A DNA stretch of 38,413 bases from a virus: the IMG/VR virus record IMGVR_UViG_3300028581_000105, positions 1 to 38,413 of that record, one strand, 5' to 3'. Under the pieces are notes generated by a model. That model saw only the letters and a list, made by a program, of their open reading frames with translations, was not told the DNA's origin and made no database searches. Shown here one piece after another: positions 1-35,753 of the stretch; position 1 is the first letter of the stretch; each line of letters opens with the position of its first letter. A program made the translations under genes and the position numbers.

Positions 1-118
1 TCCTTGCTACAATAAATTCAGCCTTACTTCTTAAAAAGATCTTTTTATTATCCCACGTTTCATGGTATCCAATGTAACCCCTATTTTTAACACTACCTTT
101 TTTTACTTTACCTCCCAT
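1..118 (-). CDS. Free-standing homing endonuclease, N-terminal fragment (cut by window start)
   Basis: An open frame begins with ATG at 118-116 and runs off the window at base 1, giving 39 codons. The start reads MGGKVKKGSVKNRGYIGY and later has IFLRSKAEF. This style (GYIGYH, then FLRSxxEFIxAR) is what I associate with phage homing endonucleases of the Vsr-like type found between split-intein halves. It lies directly downstream of the gene for the N-half of the split reductase, with 53 bases between. A copy of the ATATTTAT motif (132-139) is 13 bases upstream of the ATG. The C-terminal intein half and the rest of the reductase should follow beyond the window. The frame and position are seen; the endonuclease identity is inferred from a short fragment. 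Confidence 0.55.
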   Translation of the reverse strand, partial: MGGKVKKGSVKNRGYIGYHETWDNKKIFLRSKAEFIVAR

Positions 119-171: not shown

Positions 172-2367
172 TTATTTCATTTCTTGTATGTCATCCTCTT
201 CTGTTAAATCTTTAGCTTCAACCCAACCTCTATTAATTGTGTAAAATCTGTGATCATCAGTACAAGTTATTTGTTTTTCAACACCATCAACATCTACGGT
301 TAATCTAATAACTGGGCTATCTTTTTTAGTTAGTTGTCCAGCAATAACTTTTTTATTTTCGATTACACCTGTTTCAATGTTGAATGTAGGTACTTCCAAC
401 TGTTCACCATTATTAATCATTTCCACTATATCTCTAATGGTTTTAACATTACCACCACATTCTATTTTAGTATCACCAATAAAACAACAAGGATTAGTCC
501 CCCAATCTTTATCGTTAGTTAAATAGATTCCTGGTTCTCCAGCCCCACTTAATTCAATACGTTTCCAAAGGTCGTTAAAAAAGTCTTGTGTAATCTTATG
601 ACGTACCAATACTGCTGAATTGTTTGCTCTACCTCTTTGTGGGTTTTGTTCCCACCAATTACCAGACTTACAAGCAATCATCTCTTCATCATCAGCAGAG
701 AACAAACTAATCAAAGCTGCCCTACGAATACCACCTGCTAATACTGCGTCAGCAATATAACAAACCACATCGTGTACCTCAATCGGTGTTACTTTTTCAC
801 CGTCTTCTTTATTGTCCAAAACTTTTTTAATATTGTGTAAACAATCTTTAAGTGGTTGAGGTCCTGGTGCTTTACCGCCTGAAGTCACCAATCTAGCTCC
901 TTTTGGGCGAATATCTGAAAAATCAAATATTGGTGTTGATGATTTGCCACCAAAATAAGATTCCATTAGTATTTTAATGGCGTCAGCCCAACCTTCGATA
1001 GAATCACCGATAAGATATCTTCTAGTTCTATTTGGGTTTGGTTTTTTAATTTCGGGTAACTTATCGACATGATGTTTTTGTACAGAATACCCAACACCGG
1101 TACCACCTAATAAAAGAAACATGGTTTCAGCAAAAGCGTCTGTATGGTCAATTGGCATATATGCACAATTACCGGTCACAATACCACCACTCAATACAAA
1201 AGAGTGGTCATCTTCAACTTCTAAACACCAAACTTCTGATATTTCAATATTTTTTTCAATGTTTGTAACAACCCAAGTGGTTTGTGGTTTACTACCAATA
1301 TTTGAACTTATAGAATATTTTTTACTATCTGGATTTCTTTTAACATCATCACCTAAATTTGACGTTAAATCTTCTATATTTTTTTCAGTTAAAATATATT
1401 GTCCTACGGTTTCAAAAACTTCCTCAACAACTTTTTGATGTACTTTATCTGAAACATATATTGATTTGTATTTTGATAATTTTTGGTTTTGGTACCAGTC
1501 AGGATTTTTATAGGCATCCGCACATAAATAACCATCAACAAAAGCTTTTACTAAATTAATATCGTCAACATTTAAATCAGGAAATTGTTTTAAATATTTT
1601 CCAGTGTAAACCATTGAATCACCTTTTATTGATAAACTTTCGGAACTTTCAAAACCCATTTCGATAAATCTATCTAAATACTTTTGTTTGTCGTCACCGC
1701 AAAGTCTAACCATAGAGTATTTGTAATCTCCATTTTTATCTTTAACATTTGTTCCGTCACCAAAAACATAACCATAACACCAGTAAAGCCTTTCAAAAGG
1801 TGTTGCCTCATAATAATCAAACGACCCAAAATTTGGTGTTTTAAATATTTTACCCCCTACGGTTAAGTCAGTGGTTTCTTCACCACCATATAAAATCCAC
1901 CTATGATTATTTGTTGCTTTAACTTTTTTAACACTTTTACCCCTATTAAATGTTATTTCATTTAAAGTTTGTTTACCATAATTTTTAACTACAGCTTTTT
2001 TCCAATTACCTAAATGTGTTAAAACGGTAATTTGATCACCATCTTCAAAATCTTCAAAAGATTTAACACCTTTACTGGTTATAAATTTAGTATCTTCACT
2101 AAAACAATTGTAAATTCTGTTCGGGCTTATCTCAACAGGTTTACCACCGAACTGTAAACTTCTCATTGACGGTAAAACTTTTTTGTTGTAAACCAACTTA
2201 TAGACTTTTTCAATATCTTCTTTTAGTTGTGGATATTTTTTTTGGTGCATCTCTTTATTTCTGGTCACCAATTCTTCCCAAGTTTCTCTTCTGTTTAACT
2301 CTGGGATGTATTTTGCGTATTTCATATAGACAGTTAAGTCCGAGAGTATTTTGTTTGAAATCTCCAT
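172..2367 (-). CDS. nrdJ: Class II (adenosylcobalamin-dependent) ribonucleotide reductase, N-terminal part, carrying one full intein and the N-half of a split intein
   Basis: This makes deoxyribonucleotides for phage DNA synthesis using a B12-generated thiyl radical. Extein residues 1-87 and 401-627 of the 731-residue product resemble monomeric RTPR: CAYMPIDHTDAFAETMF at 401, LLLGGTGVGYSVQ, SGGKAPGPQPLKDC near 497, AGGIRRAA near 544, and NPC at 625-627. C401 corresponds to the redox cysteine (C119 in the Lactobacillus enzyme) and C627 to the radical cysteine (C408). Residues 88-400 are a contiguous intein. Residues 628-731 are an N-intein that ends in a stop codon, so this gene alone cannot give a full enzyme. 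The C-terminal part, including the C-terminal redox cysteines, must be in a separate gene beyond base 1, to be joined by trans-splicing. The ATG at 2367 directly precedes the extein sequence. It is last in the replication module. Confidence 0.9.
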   Translation of the reverse strand: MEISNKILSDLTVYMKYAKYIPELNRRETWEELVTRNKEMHQKKYPQLKEDIEKVYKLVYNKKVLPSMRSLQFGGKPVEISPNRIYNCFSEDTKFITSKGVKSFEDFEDGDQITVLTHLGNWKKAVVKNYGKQTLNEITFNRGKSVKKVKATNNHRWILYGGEETTDLTVGGKIFKTPNFGSFDYYEATPFERLYWCYGYVFGDGTNVKDKNGDYKYSMVRLCGDDKQKYLDRFIEMGFESSESLSIKGDSMVYTGKYLKQFPDLNVDDINLVKAFVDGYLCADAYKNPDWYQNQKLSKYKSIYVSDKVHQKVVEEVFETVGQYILTEKNIEDLTSNLGDDVKRNPDSKKYSISSNIGSKPQTTWVVTNIEKNIEISEVWCLEVEDDHSFVLSGGIVTGNCAYMPIDHTDAFAETMFLLLGGTGVGYSVQKHHVDKLPEIKKPNPNRTRRYLIGDSIEGWADAIKILMESYFGGKSSTPIFDFSDIRPKGARLVTSGGKAPGPQPLKDCLHNIKKVLDNKEDGEKVTPIEVHDVVCYIADAVLAGGIRRAALISLFSADDEEMIACKSGNWWEQNPQRGRANNSAVLVRHKITQDFFNDLWKRIELSGAGEPGIYLTNDKDWGTNPCCFIGDTKIECGGNVKTIRDIVEMINNGEQLEVPTFNIETGVIENKKVIAGQLTKKDSPVIRLTVDVDGVEKQITCTDDHRFYTINRGWVEAKDLTEEDDIQEMK
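175..486 (-). other. Split intein N-half (NrdJ-1-like) in the ribonucleotide reductase
   Basis: This codes for 104 residues beginning CFIGDTKIEC and ending in a stop with no C-terminal splicing motifs, which is the form of an N-intein of a split intein. The insertion follows the NPC radical-cysteine motif exactly, the site of the described NrdJ-1 split intein (native junction NPC / SEI). Shared features with NrdJ-1 as I recall it include the length (about 105), IxEVVEI-like spacing, a TRCTPDHPVYTKNRG-like block (here ITCTDDHRFYTINRGW), and an acidic tail after ADELT (here AKDLTEEDD). The C-half is expected upstream of base 1. Confidence 0.85.
1168..2106 (-). other. Contiguous intein with LAGLIDADG homing endonuclease in the ribonucleotide reductase
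   Basis: This codes for 313 residues (C88 to N400 of the reductase reading). Block A is CFSEDTKFIT. The C-terminal splicing block is SFVLSGGIVTGN followed by extein C401. The penultimate residue is Gly, not the usual His, as in a minority of active inteins. Two LAGLIDADG-like motifs are visible: CYGYVFGDG near intein residue 110 and AFVDGYLCADA near 188, so the endonuclease looks intact. The insertion is immediately before the redox cysteine of the enzyme. Removal by cis protein splicing restores the sequence IYN-CAYMP. Confidence 0.88.
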
Positions 2368-2394
2368 TTTTTTATTTTTTATTAAATTTAGTAA

Positions 2395-2856
2395 TTATTT
2401 TCCTTTTTGTAACTCTTTTGCTCGTTGAATTCTTTCACGAACATGACCTTCTTTTCTTTCATCTTGTTTCTTTTCGTAACCCAAGAATGTTTGTGAACTT
2501 TCAGTATCAATATAAACTTTTCCGTTGTCAAATGTGCAGTCATCAAAAATAACACCATCTTTACCGAAACGTGATTTTAAAACAGCAATTGTCGCTTTAC
2601 CCGATTCTTTTTGTGGTAATGTTCTAGCGATTGACATGATAAAATGTCCGATTTGTGCTTTCTTAATAGAACCACCCATTTGGTCTCCTGTTACAACGTC
2701 TGCCGATATTGATGAATTATGTGTATAGATGTTGTTAGCATAAAACATATGTGTATCCTCAACACTTATGTCTATTGTGTCCATATCACCAACTAACTCA
2801 ATGGATTCAATCTCATCTAATATGAAATCATCTAAATTTAAATTATGTTCTCTCAT
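2395..2856 (-). CDS. 41: Replicative DNA helicase gp41, C-terminal part with split intein C-half
   Basis: The product has 153 residues. Residues 1-47 are an intein C-half ending HMFYANNIYTHN. Residue S48 begins the C-extein: SSISADVVTGDQMGGSIKK, then a DnaB-like end containing GHFIMSIART, GKATIAVLKSRFGKDG and a basic tail. Joined to the 355-residue N-extein of the next gene upstream, this gives QGNR-SSISADVV and a 461-residue helicase, close to T4 gp41 (475). The product unwinds the phage replication fork as a hexamer. The ATG at 2856 follows the stop of the small endonuclease remnant by four bases. It is 27 bases from the reductase start. Confidence 0.9.
   Translation of the reverse strand: MREHNLNLDDFILDEIESIELVGDMDTIDISVEDTHMFYANNIYTHNSSISADVVTGDQMGGSIKKAQIGHFIMSIARTLPQKESGKATIAVLKSRFGKDGVIFDDCTFDNGKVYIDTESSQTFLGYEKKQDERKEGHVRERIQRAKELQKGK
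2716..2856 (-). other. Split intein C-half (gp41-1-like)
   Basis: This is a 47-residue C-intein with the typical block FYANNIYTHN followed by Ser+1. The described gp41-1 C-intein is about 37 residues and ends FYANDILTHN-SS, so this one has an N-terminal extension of about ten residues. The match of the final block, the Ser+1 and the host protein are all as in gp41-1. Confidence 0.88.
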
Positions 2857-2860
2857 TTTT

Positions 2861-3031
2861 TTATTTGTTTAAAAAATTTATACAATCATTTATTACTATT
2901 TCTGGGTTTTTCTTATATACAGATTCTCGTATTCTTAATAAAGAATAACCATTTTCCATTAAAAAGTCATCTTTTTTATTATCTAAAATTTTAGTTTCTT
3001 CCATATCATGCCAATGTTCAAAAATTTTCAT
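2861..3031 (-). pseudogene. Remnant of a Vsr-like homing endonuclease between the split-intein halves
   Basis: A 56-codon ORF occupies the whole gap between the two helicase genes. Its ATG overlaps the upstream stop (ATGA), and its TAA is four bases before the next ATG. Motifs run EHWHDMEETKILDNKKDDF then ENGYSLLRIRES. This resembles the C-terminal end of Vsr/DUF559-like nucleases (D..K..F..ENGY.LLRI.E). The N-terminal part with the first catalytic residues is absent, so it is likely a decayed homing endonuclease of the kind reported inside split-intein genes. It could alternatively be retained as a small expressed peptide that couples translation of the two halves. The ORF is certain; the origin is inferred. 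Confidence 0.65.
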
Positions 3032-4365
3032 TTTTTTGTGAGTAATAAATCACCTACTTTTAATCCATTGGATATAGATTTTAATTTTCCATATTTAACC
3101 GGAAATTCATGTTTGGCAGAAACTTTTATCGTTTTACCGGATTTTGTTTTTATCTCATAAACTGGTTGTTTTTCGATTGGGAATACTTTAGTTACCCTCT
3201 TAAACCCATCATGTGTTAAAATTTCATCTCCTTCATTTATTGTACCGATCTCTATTACCCCTCTATTTTTAGTCTCAACTTTTTCACGAAGAAAGATACA
3301 CCGGTTTCCTTGAACCGCAGTCCAACCAACAAGTCCGAACTCACTTAACATTGACTCAAACCCTCTCATGACATTACCTTCACCTGACCATTCGTCGGAA
3401 TAAATTTTAGATGACTCGACACAATCTATATAATCTAAAACAATTAAATCTGGTTTGAACCCTTTTGATATTTCGTGTCTAATAAATGATTTTATGGCCT
3501 GAATTGTTACACCCTCAGAAGAAAACTTTTTGATTTTTAAATCGTTTGTTTTGTTTAAAGTAACTTCTTTGTGTTTTTGTAAAACTTCTTCTTTTCTTTC
3601 AGACAATTCATTTAATTCAATTCCAGACCAACATGCCAAATGTTTTCTTTTAATAACATCTGGCATATCTTCAAAAACAATTTGTAAAACATTATAACCT
3701 TCATTGTAAGCCGTATTTGCCATTTTTGTTAATACGGTAGTTTTTCCTGTACCGTATGGGGCCAAGACAACACCAAGTTCGCCTCTTGATAACCCACCAT
3801 CGGTCAGTTCGTCAATACCATTTATTCCCGTAGGAATTGGATGTCTAAAATCCTTTTCTAAAACTGCTTCAATATTTTCACTTATAGATGTTCCATCATC
3901 TTTTTCAGAACCAACAGAAAGTGCGTCTCTTAAAATTTCTGCACACTTTTCATAACTTTCAAAATCACCGTTATCGATAATTTTGTTAATTTTTTCATTC
4001 GCTTTCTTAAGCTCTTGTTGTCGACAAAAATTTAATGCCTTTTGTTGAACAAATTCCCAGTCTTCTACCGCAAGATTATTGATTTCTTTTAACATTTCAA
4101 AAACATAGTCCTGGGTGATTTTATCCTTTACCTCCATTCTTACTATGGTTTCTAAAGTTTCATTTGCTGGAACTTTTTCATATTTCTCATAGTAATCTTT
4201 AAGTTGAGCCATGATAAGACGAAAATATTCATTATCAAAATACTTTGCGTGAACAATATCAATGATTCTATCAGAAAACTTTTTATTTGCGGGATGTAGG
4301 ATTTGGTTTATTAATTCCATTTGAAACTTGTAACCAAGGTATCCTAAAGTAACATTTTTAGTCAT
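3028..4365 (-). CDS. 41: Replicative DNA helicase gp41 (DnaB-like), N-terminal part with split intein N-half
   Basis: The product has 445 residues. Residues 1-355 are the DnaB-like N-extein with Walker A APYGTGKTT at 202-210, Walker B DLIVLDYID at 306-314, and an end at GWTAVQGNR, just where T4-type gp41 continues with the C-terminal arginine-finger region. Residues 356-445 are an N-intein. The complete helicase requires trans-splicing with the product of the gene at 2395-2856. The first 150 residues form the helical N-terminal domain typical of the family. An ATATTTAT motif (4386-4393) lies 20 bases before the ATG. The stop overlaps the next ORF by ATGA, suggesting coupled translation of both halves. 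Confidence 0.92.
   Translation of the reverse strand: MTKNVTLGYLGYKFQMELINQILHPANKKFSDRIIDIVHAKYFDNEYFRLIMAQLKDYYEKYEKVPANETLETIVRMEVKDKITQDYVFEMLKEINNLAVEDWEFVQQKALNFCRQQELKKANEKINKIIDNGDFESYEKCAEILRDALSVGSEKDDGTSISENIEAVLEKDFRHPIPTGINGIDELTDGGLSRGELGVVLAPYGTGKTTVLTKMANTAYNEGYNVLQIVFEDMPDVIKRKHLACWSGIELNELSERKEEVLQKHKEVTLNKTNDLKIKKFSSEGVTIQAIKSFIRHEISKGFKPDLIVLDYIDCVESSKIYSDEWSGEGNVMRGFESMLSEFGLVGWTAVQGNRCIFLREKVETKNRGVIEIGTINEGDEILTHDGFKRVTKVFPIEKQPVYEIKTKSGKTIKVSAKHEFPVKYGKLKSISNGLKVGDLLLTKK
3031..3300 (-). other. Split intein N-half (gp41-1-like)
   Basis: This is a 90-residue N-intein starting CIFLREKVET and ending GLKVGDLLLTKK before the stop. The gp41-1 N-intein has 88 residues, with the same plan: NVQVGD-like INEGDEILTHDGF, VTKVFP, KITLEDGK-like IKTKSGKTI, a conserved CSEEHLFP-like block (SAKHEFPVKYG) and SNGLKVGD near the end. 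The insertion site (after GNR, before SS) is also that of gp41-1. Confidence 0.9.
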
Positions 4366-4385
4366 TTATTTTTTTATCGTTTTTA

Positions 4386-4393
4386 ATAAATAT
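4386..4393 (-). promoter_or_regulatory. Candidate phage promoter motif before the helicase gene
   Basis: ATATTTATT on the minus strand lies 20 bases upstream of the ATG at 4365. It is the same motif as before the structural genes. No TTG is seen at the expected -33 distance. Confidence 0.4.
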
Positions 4394-4411
4394 TCAAGAA
4401 AGTTTTGTTCT

Positions 4412-4834
4412 TTAGTTTTCCACAGAAAAATATTCTTGCGATAACGTTTCCTGTATTGAATAAATAATATTAGGAATAATGTCTCGAATATCAACACTGT
4501 ATCTTACTCTCTGGGGGTAAACATTACCTGTAAATCTTTTAGCTGCAATAACTCTTTCATCGATTCTAATTTCAAAATCAAAGATGTCTTCTTTTTCAAA
4601 AATAGGGGTTCTATTTATTTGTTCTAAAGTTTGAGTGTCGTATGGGTTAAACTGGTTCCAGATATAATCAACGGATTTCTCCACCATTCTTTCTTGAATC
4701 ATAGAGACACAATCAGAAACACAGTAAAGTATATCCAAAGATTGGACTGACTTTGGGCTAAAATTTCTGACAGCGAAATAACGTTGGCAGATGATGTTCC
4801 CGTTAATTTTAAGTAAAAATTCAAATTTTTTCAT
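4412..4834 (-). CDS. Conserved-looking phage protein of unknown function with an internal duplication
   Basis: I do not recognise this 140-residue protein. It consists of two related halves. Residues 1-48 (FEFLLKINGNIICQRYFAV, then SLDILYCVSDCVSMIQE) align with residues 85-133 (FDFEIRIDERVIAAKRFTG, then SVDIRDIIPNIIYSIQE). This suggests an alpha/beta unit duplicated in tandem. It has no membrane segment or signal peptide. It sits between RNase H and helicase genes, so a role in replication or nucleotide metabolism is possible, but nothing in the sequence shows it. Confidence 0.8.
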   Translation of the reverse strand: MKKFEFLLKINGNIICQRYFAVRNFSPKSVQSLDILYCVSDCVSMIQERMVEKSVDYIWNQFNPYDTQTLEQINRTPIFEKEDIFDFEIRIDERVIAAKRFTGNVYPQRVRYSVDIRDIIPNIIYSIQETLSQEYFSVEN

Positions 4835-4930
4835 AATTTTAATTTAAGATATTAGTATTTTTTTAAATTCCTGTTTGTTTTACTACATAAGGATTGTAGG
4901 TTTTTGTGATGAAACAATTTTAATATTTCA

Positions 4931-5953
4931 TCATGATTTTGAGTTTTTATAATTTGTTCTTTCTTTCTTGGATAATTTAATGAACGGTTCTAAAAAACTT
5001 AAGTACCCATTTTCACCACCAGGTATAGTATACATAATACCGTCTTCAAACATCATTTTTAAAACATTTTTATGATTACGTCCTTCAGGATTTAAAGGTA
5101 AATTTACCAGATTTAAAACTTCTTCTTTTGCTTCATCAGTTAAAAGGGGTTGATGTAAGTCAATAATTGTTTTATTAATCTCGTAAACATTACCTTTATG
5201 TTTTCCTTTAGTTTTTCCTTCTATTATAGCATCAAATATCTTTAATTTTTTTTCTTCTTTCAAACCCTTTGTTCTTTCAATAATCTCTTCTAAAGTTACT
5301 TTTCGTTCTTTAATTTCAGGAAAATAATTTATGAGTGTTGTTTCGGTTACACCTTCAATGCCTTTTATATTATCGGTTACACATCCTTCGATGATTTTTA
5401 CTAATGCAGCATTTTCATAATGATGTTTAAAATACCAATTATAATTACCAATTCCAAGTAGTATTTTTTTATCCGCTAAATAAAGGTTTACCTCTTCAGT
5501 GATTAACTGACATAGGTCTCTATCATTTGTGTATATGATAACATCCTCATTTTGTTTTTTATTAAGAGAATAGTAGGCCAATAAATCATCAGATTCACAA
5601 TCTGGATTTTCGTATTGTCGAAGAAACAAATCTTCGGCGTAAGCTTTAACTCTTAATTTTTGTATTTCATAGTTTTGATCAAAAAAGGTTGGTCGATTGT
5701 TTTTGTATTCAGGGTAATAATTTAATCTTAAATACCCGTTTCTTTCACCATCCCATGTAATGATAACTTTATCAACAGCAAGTTCAACAATTAACTTTCT
5801 AAGTGTTGCATAAAACTGATAGATACCACCTATATGGGTTTCCTTATAGAATAAATTTTTGGCTCCGTTATAAGAACGTTTCATTAAAACGTTGCCGTCA
5901 ATAAGTAATGTTTTGGTGTTTTCTTTTTTTCTAACCTTCTTGAGACCTGTCAT
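4931..5953 (-). CDS. rnh: T4 RNase H-like 5'-3' exonuclease (FEN-1 family)
   Basis: This removes RNA primers and flaps during lagging-strand synthesis. The 340-residue product has the acidic metal ligands of the family in order: LLIDGNVLM (D19), ITWDGERN (D68), a CESDDLLAYY block (E120, D122, D123), IIYTNDRDL (D144, D146) and GCVTDNIKGIEGV (D194), the last in a helix-hairpin-helix-like region. I chose ATG at 5953. The frame is open to a TTG at 5980, but that start would overlap the upstream gene by 50 bases. GGAG lies just before this ATG, which still overlaps the preceding 73-codon gene by 23 bases. It is the fourth gene of the gp32-uvsX-unknown-rnh operon. Confidence 0.92.
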   Translation of the reverse strand: MTGLKKVRKKENTKTLLIDGNVLMKRSYNGAKNLFYKETHIGGIYQFYATLRKLIVELAVDKVIITWDGERNGYLRLNYYPEYKNNRPTFFDQNYEIQKLRVKAYAEDLFLRQYENPDCESDDLLAYYSLNKKQNEDVIIYTNDRDLCQLITEEVNLYLADKKILLGIGNYNWYFKHHYENAALVKIIEGCVTDNIKGIEGVTETTLINYFPEIKERKVTLEEIIERTKGLKEEKKLKIFDAIIEGKTKGKHKGNVYEINKTIIDLHQPLLTDEAKEEVLNLVNLPLNPEGRNHKNVLKMMFEDGIMYTIPGGENGYLSFLEPFIKLSKKERTNYKNSKS

Positions 5954-20400: not shown

Positions 20401-21512
20401 TCAAAATTAGGACCGTATTTATTATTTTTTATGTTATCGAATAAAATTTCTCTGGTAGCTTTCCCCGTTCTATTCAATAAACTAGACTTAATATCTATTT
20501 CATTTAAGTTATTAGGGTCAGCTTGGTTACTTAAAGTACCATCTTTGTTGAATATACTTAAATTAAAATCAAAATCTTGTAGAATACTTACTGGTAAACT
20601 AAAACCTCCTAAGTCGGATAAAAATTGTGCAGCTCTTCCAATGAATTGTGCTGGTCTGGTTATTGCAAAGTCTCTTTGAAATAAATCGTTTCCAGTTAAT
20701 AAACTTAATGGATTTAAGTTTACACTTCCAATGGTTTCGTCAATAAAATTAATTCTAACCCTTTCTTTAACCTCAAAACCTCTTCTTTCTCTAGCAATTC
20801 TATCTAACTCCGATATGTTTTCACCGTCAGGTTTGTAATTAATACCTGAACCTATTGTACTAAAAGGAATAATCCCAACACCAAGAGTTCGGTTAAATAT
20901 TTCATCTCTAAAATCATTTTGAATCCCTGGATTATATTGTATTAACCCTGTGTTTGCTTTAACTAAAACTTCTTGAATATCAGAATCATATGACACTAAT
21001 GAGTTGGGGCCATACTTATTTGTTTTCTTTTCGTTGTTTATAATCTCGTCGTTTCTATTAACAGATAATCCGTCTTGAAACCACTTTTCAACATTACCAA
21101 CAAATCCTAACTGTAATGTTGCCCCAACACTGTATTGGGTTTTATAATCATTAAACTCTTGATCAAAAACACCGTAATAATTTGGGTACCAACTAGCCAA
21201 TTCTGCCAACGTTGGATTTTTTGCCAAGTTGTCGTCTAAGGGGTTTGTAAAGTTATTGTATACCGAAGGTGTTTGAGATACCGTTGTAACGTCTGGCGTA
21301 TCTACAATGTTGAATGAAGACTGACTAACGTCGTACTCGGTTCCTCTACCAGCTTGTACTGGGTTTGTAATCCCTAATGTATTAGCGATTGCAGGTTCTA
21401 TATTTTGAAGATTATGTGAAACTAAATAATTTAAAAAATTACTGTCTGTGATAGGACCTAAGTTGACACTATCAAAATAATCTATGGTATAATTAAACGG
21501 ATTTATTGGCAT
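17427..21512 (-). CDS. Large baseplate/tail protein with an OmpA-like segment
   Basis: The 1361-residue virion protein is Asn/Tyr-rich. Residues around 830-970 carry an OmpA C-terminal-like pattern: YKIKIVAYTSVDS, then YNQELATARATNTKEYLYTK, and ASKEARYAIITLE, the last two matching the peptidoglycan-binding helix and final strand. Around 1090-1180, ICVLRIGDFYNTKIVVDSVN, DLNPEGIGVQP and SFKFIGGSSLGGPI resemble tube-initiator or baseplate-tube proteins of contractile tails (T4 gp48/gp54 or CIS tube-cap type). Together they suggest a baseplate component that meets the cell wall. The candidate late promoter 21533-21540 is upstream. Confidence 0.75.
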   Translation of the reverse strand: MPINPFNYTIDYFDSVNLGPITDSNFLNYLVSHNLQNIEPAIANTLGITNPVQAGRGTEYDVSQSSFNIVDTPDVTTVSQTPSVYNNFTNPLDDNLAKNPTLAELASWYPNYYGVFDQEFNDYKTQYSVGATLQLGFVGNVEKWFQDGLSVNRNDEIINNEKKTNKYGPNSLVSYDSDIQEVLVKANTGLIQYNPGIQNDFRDEIFNRTLGVGIIPFSTIGSGINYKPDGENISELDRIARERRGFEVKERVRINFIDETIGSVNLNPLSLLTGNDLFQRDFAITRPAQFIGRAAQFLSDLGGFSLPVSILQDFDFNLSIFNKDGTLSNQADPNNLNEIDIKSSLLNRTGKATREILFDNIKNNKYGPNFDEDYEVKNEGTYLTPLPETPLEGVTGDKYGGFYGKYEPIGIVNKSVSSAIGLGQELAINEYTVNDNEKPDTTYLGTPSEIMARSANYGTVNEKFDWRIRKGDNKFTKGILQYTQNLVNKSKLGDAAGYIGYFDSIGKTGAINETGFHQSGVESSDLVPERPSRGNTARNYNFETDSGGDYYCRSWSSRQKFHTWNNLTRKSGNWWRGQESNKNMTMNWGDDPKGTPKISFDKGDLEILKKLKSGTQGAAIPYMFSIENLAWKDAPQYVELPECEKGPNSGRIMWFPPYDISFSENNSVNWESTSFVGRGENIYTYNNSERSGTLDFTIIVDHPAVLNQIRDRFSSEIISDEPYHSFFAGCDIDTLRSLVDKEVSKTEITFNEDGTLQTKPCDVTQPPFNNIKIYFENSRNVSTNVGRVVDLDLYEVVYPNISLDGVNQGEWPNNASLYPCGPASANTYSYLNLETVSQDKIDQLVSFLLTEDGKNYKIKIVAYTSVDSPTSTYNQELATARATNTKEYLYTKLIALETDPPPLYGNPNYPSYPTEKDLVNNPDRWDVKGEANPGSQNLTGNVAYGNPCNSLGTNDPNSRASKEARYAIITLEENKAIQNNLLQGITKDNKKVATDKFQNERNDLVNQFAKEFITECEYFEAIKRDQPFVYTSLQEKIKGFHPAFHSMTPEGLNSRLTFLNQCTRQGPQILDSTKPQNMVFGRPPICVLRIGDFYNTKIVVDSVNISYDPLQWDLNPEGIGVQPMLAKVTMSFKFIGGSSLGGPIKQLQNAVSYNFYANTGVYQPWKYTEEIINQKQRFIYGAFMSPEDAETAYGNINSSLGVVQDVSVKQNLESVNTTSVGTNTPISSTATTQISNSQPAPPPVSSSGNPPTANVSTDMERLTMSAEKVGPEIQLVFGRKESSDSSSLNNDYTITNVNILALNDDSNSIKNIPVGETILASSLITNISIFPPSPINTSGEQYSVYVYFSNNTDSKNAALKI

Positions 21513-21532
21513 TTTTTAAAAATCTTTTTTTA

Positions 21533-21540
21533 ATAAATAT
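21533..21540 (-). promoter_or_regulatory. Candidate late promoter motif before the 1361-residue protein
   Basis: ATATTTATTA on the minus strand lies 20 bases upstream of the ATG at 21512, in a 121-base gap downstream of the tape measure gene. Confidence 0.45.
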
Positions 21541-21583
21541 TTACATTCAAAAAATTTGCATATAATATTAATGCATATCCGGT

Positions 21584-21617
21584 TTTTAATAAAGCATTAA
21601 TTTTAATAAAGCATTAA
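21584..21617. repeat. Perfect tandem duplication of 17 bp
   Basis: TTTTAATAAAGCATTAA occurs twice head to tail (21584-21600, 21601-21617) in the gap after the tape measure gene. On the minus strand AAAGCATTA just after the tape measure stop can pair with TAATGCTTT from the near copy, so the repeat may form a weak transcript-end hairpin. Confidence 0.7.
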
Positions 21618-21633
21618 ATAATAAATAATGCTT

Positions 21634-24321
21634 TTAAGCAAATTTATTAGTAGCACCGGCTTTGCCACCATTTCTATCTGAATAACTTTTGCCAATAATA
21701 GCATCTTTAAGTTCGGATATCCAGTTAGACTCGGCTAATAGTTTGTCTTTAACACCAGATAAGGAACCTTCACCTTTGATTGTTATCTCACCGTCTACCG
21801 TTAAACTTTCATCGAACTTGATTGTTGTGGTTCCACCTAATAAGGCCATCCAAGTGGTTAAAGATTTTAAAGCATCTAATTTATCTTGGTCAACTGAGTT
21901 AATAGCCTTAATAGATTCTTTTAAACCGTTGGAACCCCCAACAGCATTTAAAGATTCCGCCGTATTGACTAACATACTTGTAACACCACCTAATATTAAC
22001 AATCCAGGTAACGCTAATAGTGATGCCGCACCCATCGCGACTAATGAAAGTGTTAAAACCCCGATACCGGCTGCCATCATTAGAAATCCAGCACCTGCCA
22101 TCATAGCACTAGAACCATTATCACCGACAACCGCAAATAAATTAGTGAAAGAATTAACCAATATTGCCATTCCTGTTGCCGCCAAAAACACCGCCCCACC
22201 AATCATTAACATTCCGGCACCCAACCCAAGTAAAACTAATGCCGCGACCTCACCAACACCACTCATAGCTAAAATAGTTAAAATTGCGACAAAAGCCCCT
22301 AAACCTACGGCTACGTTATATAACAAATCTTTATCAACTGTCTGTAGTTTTATCAAAGCATCAGCAAAAATATCTAAAGCTTTTGCAACCATCATTAACG
22401 CCGCACCAACTGCCAAGATTGTTGCTGCAGTACCTAAAGAACCCATGAGACTTCCCATACCACTAGCTTTTGCTGCGTTACCAGTAGCAGTGGTCATTGC
22501 CGCGTTACCTTTCGCTTGAGCAAGTGCTTGTGAACCCGTATTCATACCTCCACCGACCACACGATTTCCTGCCATTGCGGCAGATATTTGTCCTGCTGCT
22601 GTAGCCCCTCCAGTGGTCATAGAAGTTGATATTGTTCTTCCTAAGAAAAGTGATTTTGCCACCCAAAAAGCGGCACTCGCCAATCCACTTTTAGCGAAAG
22701 CAATTAACCCTATAGTAAGTTCTGGGAATTTGGTAACAAGGTTTCCTAACATCACAAAAAAAGGTGAAACACCCTTAATAAAATCAGACAAACCTGTAAT
22801 AAATTTAGTCATGTTGGTGGAAATTCCATCAGCAGCTGGTTTAAAAACGGCCATCAACTCTTCCAATAACGGATATGTTGCTAATATAAATTGGTTGAAT
22901 AAATTTTCCCATTGTTCTTTAACACCTGTTGCTTGTTGTGCCGCCTCTTCTGCTTGTTTTTTCTGTTCTAAAGCTTCTAACAATTGTGTCTTACCTAAAG
23001 ATTTAAGGTCTTTCATATTAGCTTTACCATCGGGAGTGAAACCCATTTGTATTTGTGCTGTCCCGTCTTTACTAACCTGAGCCATCATGGCGAGAGCTTC
23101 CTTTTGTTCAGGGTCCAAACCTTTTCCACCTAACATATTTTCAAAACGAGATATTTTCGCGGTTTGTTTTGCCGTTTGGGCTAACTCATCATAACTTAAC
23201 CCAAGGGCATTTGCGGCCTCTTTTAACCTATCCAATTCATATGCACTAACCTCAAACTCACCTGTTTTTTTATTAAAGGTAGCTGATGCGGCAGCAGCTT
23301 TCGCTAGGTCTTTGGTTAATTCTTCGGGTGCGTTTCTGGCTTTATACATTAACTGAAACGGGTCACCCATTGCGGCTAAACTTCCACCCAATACTTGTAA
23401 CTGTGCGGCAGCCTCAATAGCACCTTCAGGTCTGAAAACTTTATCAGCAACGGCCGCAACCGATTGCATACTAAGTTTAAACTTTTCCGAATATTTTGCC
23501 ATCTGCTCCAAACCTTTAACTCCAGCTTTAAAATTTAATTTATTTAAAAGACCTAAATTTTGTTGAAAACTTTTAATAACTTTAGTAGAATTAAGACCCA
23601 TTTGGGCTGAAGAAGAGTACATTTCAAAAATAAACTCTGACGATTGTTCAGCACCAAGACCAAAAGCCTCCATTTCTGCCGTTAAACCTGCCATACCTGC
23701 CATACCAAGACCGGTTGCTTTACCTATTCTTGACATATTGGTTAAGGCCTGGTCACTCAGGATAACTGCACGACCTAGTTCGTCAGAATACGCTTGTTGT
23801 GCTTCCAAAGCCTCTGTTGTGGAAACACCGTATTTTTGCATTTCAATACTCGCGGAAATAACATTATTTCGCATGATTTGCATTCTTTGACCACCAAGAC
23901 CTATTTGAGCCGCAACGTCACGAGCTTTTTGGTCGAAATCTAAATATTTGGTTGTTGCGTCACCTAGAAAACCAAGAAGAGCTTTTCCTGCCGCTAAAGG
24001 GGCTTTTTTAGCCAGCTCCTTATTAATTTCTCGTATCTGTTTTGTTTTCTTTTCTAACTCCCTATTTTCTTGTTCTAATAGTGCGGCCTGTTTTTTATCT
24101 TCTTCATTTTCAGATTGTTTAAGTTGTAAAATTAATTTTTGATTCTCTTTAATTCTAACATTTGTTTCTTGTAAGTCTTTAAAGTTATCTACAATGGTTT
24201 TACTGTAATTACCTAAATCACCGAAACTTTTAACGTTGTCTTTAACGGCTTCATTAATTTGTTTCTGTAACTTGAGACGTTCTCTTTGGTCGTCTAAATT
24301 GGATTCGAAATTATCTGCCAT
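21634..24321 (-). CDS. Tail tape measure protein
   Basis: This 895-residue protein sets tail length and is ejected on infection. The N-terminal 130 residues are a charged coiled coil (EENQKLILQLKQ-type heptads, QENRELEKKTKQIREINKEL). Residues 140-400 are helical and Ala/Gly-rich (QAYSDELGRAVILSD, GMAGLTAEMEAFGLGAEQ). Long hydrophobic segments at about 634-774 (TAATILAVGAALMMVAKAL; LILGGVTSMLV) are typical of tape measures. It lies downstream of the gp26-like baseplate gene and upstream of the large baseplate genes. It starts three bases after the preceding stop. Confidence 0.9.
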   Translation of the reverse strand: MADNFESNLDDQRERLKLQKQINEAVKDNVKSFGDLGNYSKTIVDNFKDLQETNVRIKENQKLILQLKQSENEEDKKQAALLEQENRELEKKTKQIREINKELAKKAPLAAGKALLGFLGDATTKYLDFDQKARDVAAQIGLGGQRMQIMRNNVISASIEMQKYGVSTTEALEAQQAYSDELGRAVILSDQALTNMSRIGKATGLGMAGMAGLTAEMEAFGLGAEQSSEFIFEMYSSSAQMGLNSTKVIKSFQQNLGLLNKLNFKAGVKGLEQMAKYSEKFKLSMQSVAAVADKVFRPEGAIEAAAQLQVLGGSLAAMGDPFQLMYKARNAPEELTKDLAKAAAASATFNKKTGEFEVSAYELDRLKEAANALGLSYDELAQTAKQTAKISRFENMLGGKGLDPEQKEALAMMAQVSKDGTAQIQMGFTPDGKANMKDLKSLGKTQLLEALEQKKQAEEAAQQATGVKEQWENLFNQFILATYPLLEELMAVFKPAADGISTNMTKFITGLSDFIKGVSPFFVMLGNLVTKFPELTIGLIAFAKSGLASAAFWVAKSLFLGRTISTSMTTGGATAAGQISAAMAGNRVVGGGMNTGSQALAQAKGNAAMTTATGNAAKASGMGSLMGSLGTAATILAVGAALMMVAKALDIFADALIKLQTVDKDLLYNVAVGLGAFVAILTILAMSGVGEVAALVLLGLGAGMLMIGGAVFLAATGMAILVNSFTNLFAVVGDNGSSAMMAGAGFLMMAAGIGVLTLSLVAMGAASLLALPGLLILGGVTSMLVNTAESLNAVGGSNGLKESIKAINSVDQDKLDALKSLTTWMALLGGTTTIKFDESLTVDGEITIKGEGSLSGVKDKLLAESNWISELKDAIIGKSYSDRNGGKAGATNKFA

Positions 24322-24323
24322 GG

Positions 24324-25598
24324 TTAAGAAACTAATATTTTAGCTTTTATAGGTTTATCAAAAATATCTTCTCCGGCAGCGTTGGGTTGTATATCAATAG
24401 TTTGTCGTTTTTTAAGGGTAACACCTTGGTTAATTTTACAAACTAGAGCGTTATTATTAAACTCTACAATAAAAACTGTGTTATCAGTAATTTTTTTACT
24501 TTTTCTGATTTTTGTTTCTCCATTGTAACTTGTGCCTCCGATAATATTTTTTATTTCATTAAAAACCGACTGTTGTTCAGGATCTAAACCAGAATCATTT
24601 AACTCTAATTTTACATTAGCTAGTAAACCATTTTCAGGTAAAGTGTTTATTAGTCCATTCCATTTAGTTGAATCACCACCTTTTTTACTGCCATAATTTT
24701 GGATATCTCCAGCTCTTCGTGCTTTTGCTTTAGGTCCTAAAGTAATATCTTTGATATAAATTCTGCCTTCATAACCTTTGGAATCGTCAGTCTTCTCTTC
24801 TGTGGGATTAACATCCACTTCTAAAAGTAATTCTTCTATTTCATTAAAAATATTTTCTTGTGTTTTACCAGGATTCGGTTTGGTTGCTAAAAATTTTTTA
24901 TTGTTAACAACAAATTTAAAAAACCCGTTTAAATCATTGAAAAGAGTTTCTTTGTTAACCTTCCCTCCACCTTTTCCCTCTTTTTCTTTATCAACATCTT
25001 TTTCTTCTTTACCATTTTCATCATCAGAACCTTTTTTCATAACACCCAATAAATCACTACTTAGAATAACATTATAAAATTTACCTTTATTACTTCCAGA
25101 TTCAGCTTTTAAAGCTCTGATACTTTTTTTAGTACCAGGTAAATTGGTGACCACTTCTTTTTCATCGAATTGAATTGTAAATGACGTATCACCACCCTCT
25201 GTTTTAACCTCTAATATAAAAGGTGAATCACTTATAACTCTTGCTAACGTACTAAATTTTGGTGGTTTGGGGATATTAAACTCTTCCTGTAATTCCGGTA
25301 CCTGCAGTACAAAATCAAATTCAAAAGGTTCTATAGCTAACTGTTCAGTGGTCATGATGCCATCTAATTCTGGAATGGCGTATACACCTAATTTTTGTAA
25401 TCTACCCTTAACTCTGTCTAAAGCATCTTCACCTGCCGCAATGTTTGCCGCACCCTTATCACCAGTTATTTCGGCTTCAGAACCACCAAACTTACCATAA
25501 GGGTCCATTAGGGCGTCTTTAACTTTTGTACCCCTACTTCTAGGGTCGGACAATGTCGCCTCTTTTAATTCTTGTTTTATTATTTTTTTAATATCCAT
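24324..25598 (-). CDS. Unknown structural-region protein with leader-like N-terminus
   Basis: The 424-residue product starts MDIKKIIKQELKEATLSDPR. I chose ATG at 25598 because the longer frame to 25655 runs back through a terminator hairpin and the promoter motif. The first 13 residues are a basic amphipathic helix with LKE, like the leader shared by five genes at 28-33 kb. The body has an acidic low-complexity linker (KEEKDVDKEKEGKGGGK near 200) and folded parts (FEFDFVLQVPELQEEF; GRIYIKDITLGPKAKARRAG). It has no recognised family. Its position directly before the tape measure suggests a tail or baseplate component. Confidence 0.8.
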   Translation of the reverse strand: MDIKKIIKQELKEATLSDPRSRGTKVKDALMDPYGKFGGSEAEITGDKGAANIAAGEDALDRVKGRLQKLGVYAIPELDGIMTTEQLAIEPFEFDFVLQVPELQEEFNIPKPPKFSTLARVISDSPFILEVKTEGGDTSFTIQFDEKEVVTNLPGTKKSIRALKAESGSNKGKFYNVILSSDLLGVMKKGSDDENGKEEKDVDKEKEGKGGGKVNKETLFNDLNGFFKFVVNNKKFLATKPNPGKTQENIFNEIEELLLEVDVNPTEEKTDDSKGYEGRIYIKDITLGPKAKARRAGDIQNYGSKKGGDSTKWNGLINTLPENGLLANVKLELNDSGLDPEQQSVFNEIKNIIGGTSYNGETKIRKSKKITDNTVFIVEFNNNALVCKINQGVTLKKRQTIDIQPNAAGEDIFDKPIKAKILVS

Positions 25599-25614
25599 GA
25601 AAATGGTTTTTATT

Positions 25615-25622
25615 ATAAATAT
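25615..25622 (-). promoter_or_regulatory. Candidate late promoter motif before 24324-25598
   Basis: ATATTTATAA on the minus strand lies 16 bases before the ATG at 25598 and just after a terminator. This gives a clean terminator-promoter-gene order and supports the promoter reading of this motif. Confidence 0.5.
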
Positions 25623-25632
25623 CGTGTAAACA

Positions 25633-25659
25633 AAAAATGGGGTTATTAACCCCATTTTT
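25633..25659 (-). terminator. Rho-independent terminator after the gp26-like operon
   Basis: AAAAATGGGGTT / AACCCCATTTTT form a 12-bp stem with a 3-base loop, with a T-run on the minus strand. It begins within the stop codon of the small gene upstream. Confidence 0.88.
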
Positions 25660-25801
25660 ATTTTTTACTTTTTGATTTAACCTTATCGTATTCTTGTTTT
25701 TGTTCCTCTAGTTCTTTTTGCCATAGATCCAAATAAACCCGACGTTCCCAAACTGGTATTGCTAAAACAGCTTCATAAGAAAATCTCATATGTTTAACCA
25801 T
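25658..25801 (-). CDS. Small tail protein downstream of the gp26-like gene
   Basis: From ATG at 25801 this gives 47 residues (MVKHMRFSYEAVLAIPVWER, then a charged helical tail). GGGAG lies nine bases before the ATG. The pattern (KH.-FSYE.V...PVWERR.YL) is like the small proteins I recall after gp26 homologues in T4-like cyanophages. The frame is open upstream to a TTG at 25873, overlapping the gp26-like gene. A longer 71-residue form, or a fusion made by frameshifting at the T7 run in the overlap, cannot be excluded. The gene ends at the operon terminator. Confidence 0.65.
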   Translation of the reverse strand: MVKHMRFSYEAVLAIPVWERRVYLDLWQKELEEQKQEYDKVKSKSKK

Positions 25802-25829
25802 ATAATAAATCTCCCTCCTAAGGGCGATA

Positions 25830-26600
25830 CTATATTCTAACGTTAGGCCAAAAAAAGTTGAGTCCGATGGCAACTGGAGCTTGAAAGGTACCTGTCGGCC
25901 CCTCCACTTCCACCGACATGTCTATACCTGGTTCAATCGAATCTGAGTATTCTCTAAATTTAAGAGAATCAAAAGCTGGCATCACATTAACGTATTGTTG
26001 AATGTAGTTAATATCACGGTTACCATCAATTTCTTTAATTTGTGCTTGTAACCTATAAGTTAACATATTGGAAACTTGTGATTTAGTTGCTTTTTCGTAT
26101 TTTTCAGCACGAGACATAATCGACTTTTCATCACCAACGGTTAAAAGTTTAAATTTAATTTTCAGTTTACTTTTTGGAAGTTCAAAAGAAAATTCACCTC
26201 TTTCGTCTGGTTCAACACCATCAGGGAGTTCTTTATTTTTAAGTTCACTTAAATTGATCTCATAATCAAATTCAACACCACTACCTGGGTCGGTTAACTT
26301 AACTGGGTACATTTCACCGTAACCTGTGGCTCTCAACCAAATCATGATGGCATTTCTATCACCCACCAAAAGGTCTTCCATTGGAACTGGGGATTCTTTA
26401 ATTTTTCTTTCTAAAAGATATTCTAAAACCTTCCCACTTTTAATTAAATTTTGGGAGGTTAGGATGTTTTCGTCCATTGCGGTAAGATACTCAACTTTTA
26501 CCATACCATTTTGACCTGGGTATAAAAGCCCTTTTGAAGGTAATGGAATAACATCGAATGGAACTTGAATTTGAAACTCTTGGGTTTGTTGTTTTGACAT
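25830..26600 (-). CDS. 26: gp26-like baseplate hub/assembly protein (T4 baseplate family)
   Basis: The 256-residue protein contains VIPLPSKGLLYPGQNGMVKV, YLTAMDENILTSQNLIKSG, DLLVGDRNAIMIWLRATGYG, FKLLTVGDEKSIMSRAEKYE, MPAFDSLKFREY and a C-terminal GLNFFWPN. The order PLPSKG..YP, TA.DE.IL, DRN....R...YG and the final FF.P is the pattern of the T4_baseplate family, needed for hub assembly. Spacing to the divergent Dda gene is 125 bases, with a near match to the late motif (CTATTTAT at 26676-26683). Confidence 0.85.
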   Translation of the reverse strand: MSKQQTQEFQIQVPFDVIPLPSKGLLYPGQNGMVKVEYLTAMDENILTSQNLIKSGKVLEYLLERKIKESPVPMEDLLVGDRNAIMIWLRATGYGEMYPVKLTDPGSGVEFDYEINLSELKNKELPDGVEPDERGEFSFELPKSKLKIKFKLLTVGDEKSIMSRAEKYEKATKSQVSNMLTYRLQAQIKEIDGNRDINYIQQYVNVMPAFDSLKFREYSDSIEPGIDMSVEVEGPTGTFQAPVAIGLNFFWPNVRI

Positions 26601-26725
26601 TTTAAAACTTTTTTAATATACTTATTATTTGTAACTAACTTTAAACTTTATGCTTTAATAGTAAAGTTTATAAAAATAAATAGTTATTTTTTGATTTTTT
26701 TTTACTATATTTAAAAAAAAGTTTA

Positions 26726-28096
26726 ATGGAGACTGAAATATTAAAACCTAAGATAGTACTTAACCCTGAACAACAGTTAGCGGTTAATCAAATAACAGAA
26801 TTTATAAAAAAAGGAAGTTCTGATGAATGGTTTATGTTAGAAGGAAAAGCTGGGGTTGGAAAAACAACAGTGGTTACCGAATGTTTAAAACCTTTTCTTT
26901 CTAAAAAAAGAATTATACTTTCAGCCCTTTCACATAAAGCAAAAAAAGTTATATTAGGAAAAATCAAAGAAAACTTTGATGAAGCAGAACTTAGGGGTCT
27001 TTATGCTTCTAGTGTTGCTTCCATGTTAGGTATGACGTTTGATTTGGAAACGGGTAAATTCGTTAAAATATACGGCAAGAAAAAACCAACCATTAAAATG
27101 GTAGATGTTATTGTTGTCGACGAAGCTTCTATGATTAACGAAGAAGGTTTGGCTTTAATAATGTCGGAAAAAAAGAAATCAGCGAAAGTTATTTTCTTAG
27201 GGGATATTGGACAGTTACCACCAATTAGAGAAGTTGATGATGAAAATAGTGGAAAACCTAGCTCAACATTTAAAACAAAAAACAAATATAAGTTAACCAA
27301 AAGGGTTCGACAAACAGAAAATAGTTCCATATTACCTTATTCAGATTATTACTGGAATAATTCCGTTTTAAATACAGAACCTGAAGAAGACCCAGTTCCT
27401 TTAGAAATCCGAAAAAACACTTCTGAAATTATTTTTACAACCAATTTAGAAAAAACAATTATTGAAAATAAAGAACACTTTTTAAAGTTAAAAGAAGTTC
27501 AGAATCAAGATTTAATTAAAGTTATTGTTTATAAAAACAAAACCAGAGAAGCAATTAATTGGTATATTAGAACTATTATATATGGAGAACCAAAAGAATT
27601 TGAAATAGGTGATGTTCTTATTTTTAATGATAACTACAGTGAAGGTGATGAAATTATGGTGGAAAACGCAACCGAAGTTACAATTGTTGGCATCAAAAAA
27701 GAAAAGTTTAATGCAAAATGGGATGGTTATAAATTAGACGTTACCGATAATGAAAGTTTTTGGACCGTGGATGTTTTATCAAAAACAAGTTTAGAGGTTT
27801 ATAATAAACATATTTCAGACCTTTTTAAAGCCGCAAAAAATCTACCCTTTGGAAAAGAAAGAAACCGACAATTAAAAAAAGCTTGGGATTCCAAAAGAAG
27901 GTTCGCAAATTTAGATTTTGGTTATGCAATAACATCACATAAAAGCCAAGGGTCGACATATAAATACGTTATTGTTGTTGAAGACGATATTTTATCGGTT
28001 TCAATGATAAATGAAGTTGAGAAATCACAATCGTTATATACAGCAATAACCAGGGCGTCAGATAAGGTTTGGATTGTTTCGGAATTAAATGCATAA
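26726..28096 (+). CDS. dda: Dda-like SF1B DNA helicase
   Basis: This is a 5'-3' helicase acting at origins, R-loops and stalled forks in T4-like phages. The 456-residue product (T4 Dda 439) has Walker A GKAGVGKTT at 40-48, motif II VVDEAS at 130-135, motif III GDIGQLPPI at 159-167, motif V GYAITSHKSQGST at 399-411, and motif VI YTAITRASDKVWIV at 438-451. It stands alone on the plus strand between minus-strand tail genes, as early genes often do. A TATATTTA close to the -7 box lies 13 bases before the ATG but lacks a correctly spaced TTG. It converges with the gene at 28124. Confidence 0.93.
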   Translation: METEILKPKIVLNPEQQLAVNQITEFIKKGSSDEWFMLEGKAGVGKTTVVTECLKPFLSKKRIILSALSHKAKKVILGKIKENFDEAELRGLYASSVASMLGMTFDLETGKFVKIYGKKKPTIKMVDVIVVDEASMINEEGLALIMSEKKKSAKVIFLGDIGQLPPIREVDDENSGKPSSTFKTKNKYKLTKRVRQTENSSILPYSDYYWNNSVLNTEPEEDPVPLEIRKNTSEIIFTTNLEKTIIENKEHFLKLKEVQNQDLIKVIVYKNKTREAINWYIRTIIYGEPKEFEIGDVLIFNDNYSEGDEIMVENATEVTIVGIKKEKFNAKWDGYKLDVTDNESFWTVDVLSKTSLEVYNKHISDLFKAAKNLPFGKERNRQLKKAWDSKRRFANLDFGYAITSHKSQGSTYKYVIVVEDDILSVSMINEVEKSQSLYTAITRASDKVWIVSELNA

Positions 28097-28123
28097 TTTT
28101 AATTTATCACAAAAGCCTATGGC

Positions 28124-35150: not shown

Positions 35151-35164
35151 ACATTTATTTATTA

Positions 35165-35172
35165 ATAAATAT
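35165..35172 (-). promoter_or_regulatory. Candidate late promoter motif before endonuclease copy 1
   Basis: ATATTTATTA on the minus strand lies about 14 bases before the ATG at 35150. A further ATATTTAT at 35217-35224 is in the same gap after the tail tube gene. Confidence 0.35.
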
Positions 35173-35264
35173 ACGGACTTTTCGTTGGTTGTCAAGTATG
35201 TACTTATTTAAGAAAAATAAATATATACAGAGAAAACAAAGTTTGTATTTGATAGAGAAATAAA

Positions 35265-35753
35265 TCAGAACACACTAATAGCTCTGTCAAAACGGAGCGT
35301 TGCAGTGATTTCAGCAATTTCAGATGTACTATAATCTAAAGAACCGAAGTCAACATCGTTCAACATGGTTCCCTGAAGAATCCATTTTTCGATTACAACA
35401 CCCGTTGGGTCTAACATTTCTAATTCAATGTCTTTCTTGTAACCAGCAGCATAACCTTGTCTGCCCGTCACTGATTCTGAATGTAAACGTACCCACTCCA
35501 TAAGAGCTTGGGTAGCCGAAGGACCAATCGGGTCACGGAAAGTTACACTGATAGTTTCCCATTTAAACCTACCAACCACAAAGGTAGAGGTGTTAAGGAA
35601 TTGAATTTCAGTTTCTTCCGATGTGTATTTAGGTCTAGAAGCTGATTTTACATACCACTCCTGGATCCCAAGCGGAGATGGAAATCTTAAAATAAATCGG
35701 TTTTGTTTTTTTGGTTCGTAAGGAATGGGCATCCTCATCAATAAATCTGCCAT
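35265..35753 (-). CDS. 19: gp19-like tail tube protein
   Basis: The 162-residue protein forms the stacked rings of the inner tail tube. It shows the gp19 pattern: RFILRFPSPLGIQEWYVKSA near the start, ETEIQFLNTSTFVVGRFKWE, ISVTFRDPIGPSATQALMEW, a Gly/Tyr-rich loop (GRQGYAAGYKKD), DIELEMLDPTGVVIEKW and TATLRFDRAI at the end. T4 gp19 is 163 residues. GC content is visibly higher than in its neighbours. The gene is flanked on both sides by paralogous endonucleases. Confidence 0.93.
   Translation of the reverse strand: MADLLMRMPIPYEPKKQNRFILRFPSPLGIQEWYVKSASRPKYTSEETEIQFLNTSTFVVGRFKWETISVTFRDPIGPSATQALMEWVRLHSESVTGRQGYAAGYKKDIELEMLDPTGVVIEKWILQGTMLNDVDFGSLDYSTSEIAEITATLRFDRAISVF

What the first reader, a model, noticed from the sequence alone, without database searches (positions are those of the whole stretch)
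2395..4365. Helicase gene fractured by a gp41-1-like split intein
The sequence shows two genes: one ending in a 90-residue N-intein after GNR, one starting with a 47-residue C-intein before SSISADVV. Joined exteins give a 461-residue gp41. gp41-1 is known as one of the fastest split inteins, and it was found in metagenomic data. Here it is seen in genomic context, with an extended C-half (47 against about 37 residues), a possible new natural variant.
Basis: partly seen in the sequence, partly recalled or inferred. Interest (0 to 1): 0.85.

Follow-up and report, generated by a model that had tools for sequence, protein, structure and literature searches.

The report
Split-intein helicase gene, mobility gene decayed
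A virus of bacteria carries its essential DNA-unwinding enzyme as two separate genes whose protein halves are predicted to be stitched together by a split intein; this is a known kind of arrangement, but here the DNA-cutting gene that normally sits between the halves has shrunk to a 56-codon stump, and relatives show every stage of that decay.

Summary
On the minus strand, gp41 (DnaB-like replicative helicase) is broken into a 355-aa extein plus 90-aa N-intein (4365-3028) and a 47-aa C-intein plus 106-aa extein (2856-2395). Catalytic residues are intact (Cys1, block-B His, C-terminal His-Asn, +1 Ser). A near-identical contig has the same split, and a close relative has the intact 461-aa gene. 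It is a member of the known "fractured gene" class. The 47-residue C-half is normal for this family (44-50 aa in relatives), not a new variant, and the site is probably the gp41-8 site rather than gp41-1.

The nuclease motif is gone. Among 52 distinct alleles at this site I see full endonuclease, truncated, absent, and twice a re-fused contiguous mini-intein nested among split ones. The intein diverges far more than the exteins, and the flanks carry a co-conversion signature, so it arrived by homing. The adjacent ribonucleotide reductase gene carries a cis-intein plus a second, NrdJ-1-like fracture. Splicing itself was not tested.

The parts
3301..4365 (-). gp41 DnaB-like helicase, N-extein (355 aa), ends ...WTAVQGNR
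   Evidence: ORF; PHROG 19 DnaB-like replicative helicase E=2.3e-51; T4 gp41 structures 8due/8dtp match the intact homologue L007
3028..3300 (-). N-intein, 90 aa (C1...LLLTKK) plus stop codon TGA 3030-3028
   Evidence: gp41-1 PDB 6qaz match; alignment A1, invariant C1 and block-B H64
2861..3031 (-). 56-codon ORF, C-terminal remnant of an EDxHD/Vsr-like homing endonuclease; ATG overlaps the N-half stop, stop lies 4 nt before the C-half ATG
   Evidence: translation; aligns to the end of the 372-404 aa endonucleases of L005, L006, L024, L035, L037, L049; profile match over positions 329-380 of 380, E=2e-15, in the identical copy in L002
2716..2856 (-). C-intein, 47 aa, ends ...FYANNIYTHN
   Evidence: alignment A2; intein C-terminal model TIGR01443 above cut-off
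2395..2715 (-). gp41 C-extein, 106 aa, starts SSISADVV, plus stop
   Evidence: 99% identical to the corresponding part of uninterrupted gp41 in L007
172..2367 (-). Neighbouring B12-dependent ribonucleotide reductase N-half, with a contiguous 313-aa intein (2106..1168) and ending in a 104-aa NrdJ-1-like N-intein (486..175): a second fractured gene, C-half outside the window
   Evidence: PHROG 367; NrdJ-1 intein structure 8ubs E=8.7e-14; coordinates
1..118 (-). Start of the homing endonuclease ORF of the second fracture (runs off the window)
   Evidence: translation; complete 323-aa homologue with NUMOD3 in L005

Best explanation
This is a fractured gp41 gene. The two ORFs are translated separately, the 90-aa N-intein and 47-aa C-intein associate into one Hint domain, and class-1 protein trans-splicing (Cys1, terminal Asn, +1 Ser) joins R355 to S356 to give the 461-aa replicative helicase (inferred from intact residues and conservation; not shown experimentally). 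The element entered this phage by homing driven by an EDxHD (I-Bth0305I-like) endonuclease encoded between the halves (inferred from relatives and from conversion marks). That endonuclease has since been deleted down to its last 56 codons without the E-F-D-G part of its catalytic motif (shown), so this copy can probably no longer home by itself. The split intein stays because the helicase is presumably essential and only a precise deletion or a re-fusion would be tolerated. In this intein family endonuclease loss is frequent and recent, and at least twice the split intein appears to have been healed into a contiguous mini-intein.
For: Intact gene with empty site in relative L007, 8 of 461 residues different. 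Intein conserved residues and 6qaz match. Mini-ORF aligns to the end of complete endonucleases, whose nuclease domain matches PDB 3r3p, a mobile-intron protein, at E=2.6e-5. Mobility: window versus L005 exteins are 87-92% identical in DNA, inteins only 66-71%; window-L007 differences cluster at the insertion, 15 of 97 within 17 of 461 codons, 0 of 100,000 permutations; +1 serine codon is AGY in 44 of 45 distinct empty alleles and TCN in 7 of 8 distinct fractured relatives. Endonuclease and intein distances correlate, r=0.92. Recent loss: L098 versus L086 have 99.9% identical flanks and intein, endonuclease deleted; L003 versus L005 99.4% identical, endonuclease truncated. Split inteins in lineages that lost it evolve under strong constraint, dN/dS 0.05-0.11.
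Against: No splicing, expression or proteomic data. Window and L002 are the only copies of this exact remnant and nearly identical, so selection on it cannot be measured. The +1 codon and flank signatures could partly reflect shared ancestry of the fractured alleles rather than independent conversions. Dassa et al. 2009, which defined the class, is not in the library, so details of that paper are from memory.
Confidence: 0.9

Rival explanations
1. The mini-ORF is not just debris: it is kept as a translational bridge, so that ribosomes ending the N-half restart on it (ATGA overlap) and deliver to the C-half start 4 nt beyond its stop, keeping the two splicing partners balanced.
For: All 5 truncated-endonuclease lineages keep the 3' part, as an ORF starting within about 50 nt of the N-half stop and ending between -4 and +14 nt of the C-half start. 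Most no-endonuclease loci keep a short endonuclease 3' scar at the C-half start.
Against: 11 lineages manage with gaps of up to about 100 nt and no such long ORF, and one has the two halves overlapping. The retained 3' end may simply hold the C-half initiation region. Remnant dN/dS between L090 and L092 is 0.31, against 0.05 for their intein, i.e. relaxed.
Confidence: 0.2
2. It is a true gp41-1-type intein at the gp41-1 site with an unusually long C-half.
For: Best solved-structure match is gp41-1, E=1.2e-17.
Against: 47 aa is the family norm at this site. The +1 to +3 residues are SSI, while the native gp41-1 junction is SSS (PMC7090010). The alignment to T4 gp41 puts our site a few residues before the SSDV segment, where I recall gp41-1 sitting.
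Confidence: 0.07
3. The two halves are a pseudogene or work as an unspliced two-subunit helicase.
For: No splicing data exist for this locus.
Against: All catalytic residues intact; exteins nearly identical to the intact gene; strong purifying selection on split inteins in related lineages.
Confidence: 0.03
4. The copy is still mobile in trans: an endonuclease of a related co-infecting phage (L005 type) cuts empty sites and the endonuclease-less allele is copied in.
For: Closely related phages carry full endonucleases at the same site, and conversion marks are sharp.
Against: The conversion may predate the deletion; nothing dates it.
Confidence: 0.25

Closest known systems
Fractured genes with split inteins (Dassa et al. 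2009, NAR, gkp095; paper not held, cited via PMC7891396 and PMC10882715)
   Same: Enzyme gene broken by a split intein, free-standing endonuclease between the halves in relatives, phage gp41 and RNR as hosts
   Different: In this phage the endonuclease is reduced to a 56-codon stump without its full catalytic motif
gp41-1 split intein (PDB 6qaz, 6riz)
   Same: Homologous Hint domain, same break point, class-1 residues
   Different: Only moderate similarity; C-half 47 rather than about 37 aa; probably different insertion site
gp41-8 split intein (one of the fast set in PMC7090010)
   Same: Probably the same insertion site and C-half length (from memory)
   Different: Sequence not available to the tools, so not aligned here
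NrdJ-1 split intein (PDB 8ubs)
   Same: Matches the N-intein at the end of the adjacent RNR gene
   Different: Different gene; its C-half lies outside the window
I-Bth0305I EDxHD homing endonuclease (PDB 3r3p by my recollection; family in PMC3943268)
   Same: Catalytic domain of the full-length endonucleases in relatives
   Different: The window copy lacks the first half of the catalytic motif and all N-terminal repeats

Membership tests
Class-1 split intein | Cys1 nucleophile, block-B His, C-terminal His-Asn and +1 Ser/Thr/Cys | tested here: met
   C1, H64, H46-N47, S48 in alignments A1 and A2
Class-1 split intein | Two halves on separate ORFs, broken at the usual endonuclease insertion point | tested here: met
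   Separate ORFs with stop and start; aligns with the gp41-1 break
Class-1 split intein | Trans-splicing activity | not testable with these tools
   Needs co-expression or proteomics
gp41-1 orthologue | Same insertion site and about 37-aa C-half | tested here: inconclusive
   C-half length not met (47 aa); site probably differs (SSI here, SSS native to gp41-1 per PMC7090010), but the full native gp41-1 flanks were not available
gp41-8 type | Insertion after the QxNR segment, C-half about 45-47 aa | not tested
   Features agree with what I remember; the gp41-8 sequence was not found in the library
Fractured gene sensu Dassa 2009 | Host enzyme gene interrupted by a split intein | tested here: met
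   Empty-site homologue L007
Fractured gene sensu Dassa 2009 | Free-standing endonuclease gene between the halves | tested here: not met
   Only a 56-codon remnant here; intact in L005, L006, L024 and others. The locus is a decayed derivative of the class
EDxHD homing endonuclease (mini-ORF) | Complete catalytic motif | tested here: not met
   EFDGDYWH of relatives is reduced to EHWH in the remnant

The most novel reading that the evidence does not exclude
Split inteins of this family run through a full life cycle: invasion with endonuclease, endonuclease truncation (the window), complete loss leaving the gene split, and finally natural re-fusion into a contiguous cis-splicing mini-intein. The re-fused forms (L133, L136, L138-L141, L156; separately L150) sit inside the split clade, the first group with flanks mostly 81-94% identical to split sisters, so natural split inteins can be healed. 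I did not find this described in the papers I could search, but the founding paper was not available.
Probability: 0.7. Interest if true: 0.6.

Novelty: new member of a known kind. Interest (0 to 1): 0.42.

Why it matters
Fast natural split inteins are widely used tools, and this locus adds dozens of natural sequence variants of one allelic family, including self-contained mini-intein versions with near-identical split sisters, which are ready-made pairs for asking what splitting costs or gains. It also gives an ordered series for how a selfish element decays once its nuclease is lost, and shows that a phage helicase gene can remain split after the nuclease between its halves is gone.

Tried and rejected
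Assembly artefact: rejected (L002 99.75% identical with the same split, many relatives). New variant because of the long C-half: rejected (47 aa is the norm). Literature sources for the gp41-8 junction and for Dassa 2009 or Carvajal-Vallejos 2012: not held. No match to this C-half in 50,697 phage records, no near DNA match of window 2000-26000, and no relative of the N-intein found in bacterial and archaeal genomes. A dN/dS value for L101-L103 (1.29), and that for L103-L092, came from a two-codon misregistration; corrected value for L101-L103 is 0.085. Most loci first labelled 'HENfrags' proved to be intact ORFs hit twice by the profile. I did not fold the fused N+C intein, since it is not contiguous in the DNA and would not have been accepted.

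Full report
WHAT IS THERE. On the minus strand the window carries three consecutive ORFs where relatives have one gene. ORF 4365..3028 is a DnaB-like helicase (PHROG 19, E=2.3e-51) that runs for 355 residues to WTAVQGNR and then continues into a 90-residue N-intein. ORF 2856..2395 starts with a 47-residue C-intein ending YTHN and goes on as 106 residues of helicase. Between them lies a 56-codon ORF, 3031..2861, whose ATG overlaps the stop of the first half and whose stop lies 4 nt before the second half.

THE INSERTION IS REAL. Relative L007 encodes an uninterrupted 461-aa gp41 that differs from the joined exteins at 8 residues; the intein is absent exactly between R355 and S356. L002 is 99.75% identical to the window over 8,220 nt and has the same split. 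The intein pair matches the gp41-1 crystal sequence 6qaz at E=1.2e-17. Cys1, the block-B His, the terminal His-Asn and the +1 Ser are invariant in the eight-sequence alignments, and Cys1, HN and +1 Ser hold in essentially all the distinct alleles collected (the exceptions are two contigs that end inside the C-intein and one allele with Tyr1).

THE MIDDLE ORF. In L005, L006, L024, L035, L037 and L049 the space between the halves holds a 372-404 aa ORF with repeated YGEIEGPKKW-like units and a C-terminal IIEFDGDYWH-type nuclease motif. Its end matches the solved mobile-intron protein 3r3p at E=2.6e-5, which I identify from memory as I-Bth0305I, the EDxHD type (family described in PMC3943268). 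The window's 56 codons align only with the last 52 positions of that profile, E=2e-15 in the identical L002 copy, and resume at ..HWH, so the E-F-D-G part is gone. The remnant is therefore very unlikely to cut DNA (inference).

HOW IT GOT THERE. Against L005, the window's exteins are 87-92% identical in DNA but the intein halves only 66-71%, so intein and host gene have different histories. Differences from L007 pile up at the insertion point: 15 of 97 fall in 17 of 461 codons, a concentration not reached in 100,000 codon permutations. The +1 serine codon is AGY in 44 of 45 distinct empty alleles but TCN in 7 of 8 distinct fractured relatives; that switch needs two base changes. This is what co-conversion of flanks during homing leaves behind, though shared ancestry of the fractured alleles contributes.

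DECAY SERIES. Profiles of the N-intein and C-half brought in 52 distinct interrupted alleles, all at the same Qx(N/G/S)R|C...HN|S site where both ends could be read (nearly all NR). About 28 have a full-length endonuclease ORF (326-418 aa), five lineages including the window a truncated one, 11 complete ones none, and five sequences are contiguous. Endonuclease and intein distances correlate at r=0.92, so they travelled together. Loss is recent in places: L098 and L086 have 99.9% identical flanks with and without the gene, L003 and L005 are 99.4% identical upstream with truncated and full gene. The endonuclease state changes at least 14 times on the intein tree, but that tree has many weak branches and the count used the first labels, in which L104 counted as truncated and L149 as having an endonuclease. 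Split inteins that lost it remain under strong constraint (dN/dS 0.05-0.11). The 3' end of the endonuclease is what survives in every truncation, most simply because it abuts the start region of the C-half.

RE-FUSION. In L133, L136, L138-L141 and L156 the two intein halves read as one ORF. Flanks of L133 and L139 are mostly 92-94% identical to split sisters L134 or L154 (L139 against L134 upstream 84%); L138 against L134 is 81-85% next to the site. L150 is a second, sequence-distinct case. A single clade of contiguous forms is rejected (AU p=1.7e-13, group named after the first tree was seen) and they nest among split forms, so re-fusion is the more economical direction; the reverse, insertions of co-evolving endonucleases into contiguous inteins, is not formally excluded.

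COMPARISON. This is a member of the fractured-gene class. It resembles gp41-1 but most likely sits at the gp41-8 site; the literature needed to prove that was not held. The adjacent RNR gene holds a 313-aa contiguous intein that the close relatives checked lack and a second, NrdJ-1-like fracture (8ubs E=8.7e-14) with its own endonuclease running off the window; L005 shows the whole arrangement.

LIMITS. Nothing here shows splicing. IMG/VR contigs are fragments. Tree support inside the family is modest.

Noticed in passing
L161 (ON528746.1, record 21146-28409), gp41 at locus 2382-5362: Shigella phage ESh36, filed as a T4-like Tequatrovirus (record marked UNVERIFIED), has gp41 broken into two ORFs with a gp41-1-like N-intein (6qaz E=3.3e-17) and a Vsr-like endonuclease ORF between, at a different site (DIAE|C ... 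KN|SAGLP); hundreds of related phages match only the flanks. A cultured model for fractured gp41, if the record is right.
   Followed up: partly
1168..2106 (minus): 313-aa contiguous intein in the RNR gene with LAGLIDADG-like segments; the corresponding DNA is absent in L003, L005, L007, L008 and L010.
   Followed up: partly
33567-35195 (minus) and 35809-37452 (plus): Two large free-standing homing-endonuclease genes (PHROG 3339) in opposite orientation flank a tail tube gene (35265-35753), a further sign of a phage rich in mobile nucleases.
   Followed up: no
L006, L008, L009, L024, L045-L047, L050, around gp41 residue 208: A second insertion of about 0.8-1.1 kb near the Walker A region of gp41 in several relatives, with weak N-intein similarity in some.
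   Followed up: no
L156, about 3590: Contiguous mini-intein with Tyr instead of Cys at position 1, otherwise like L138: a sequencing error or a splicing-dead allele.
   Followed up: no
L153, 6226-6333: Split allele without endonuclease whose two halves overlap by ATGA, close to a contiguous form.
   Followed up: no
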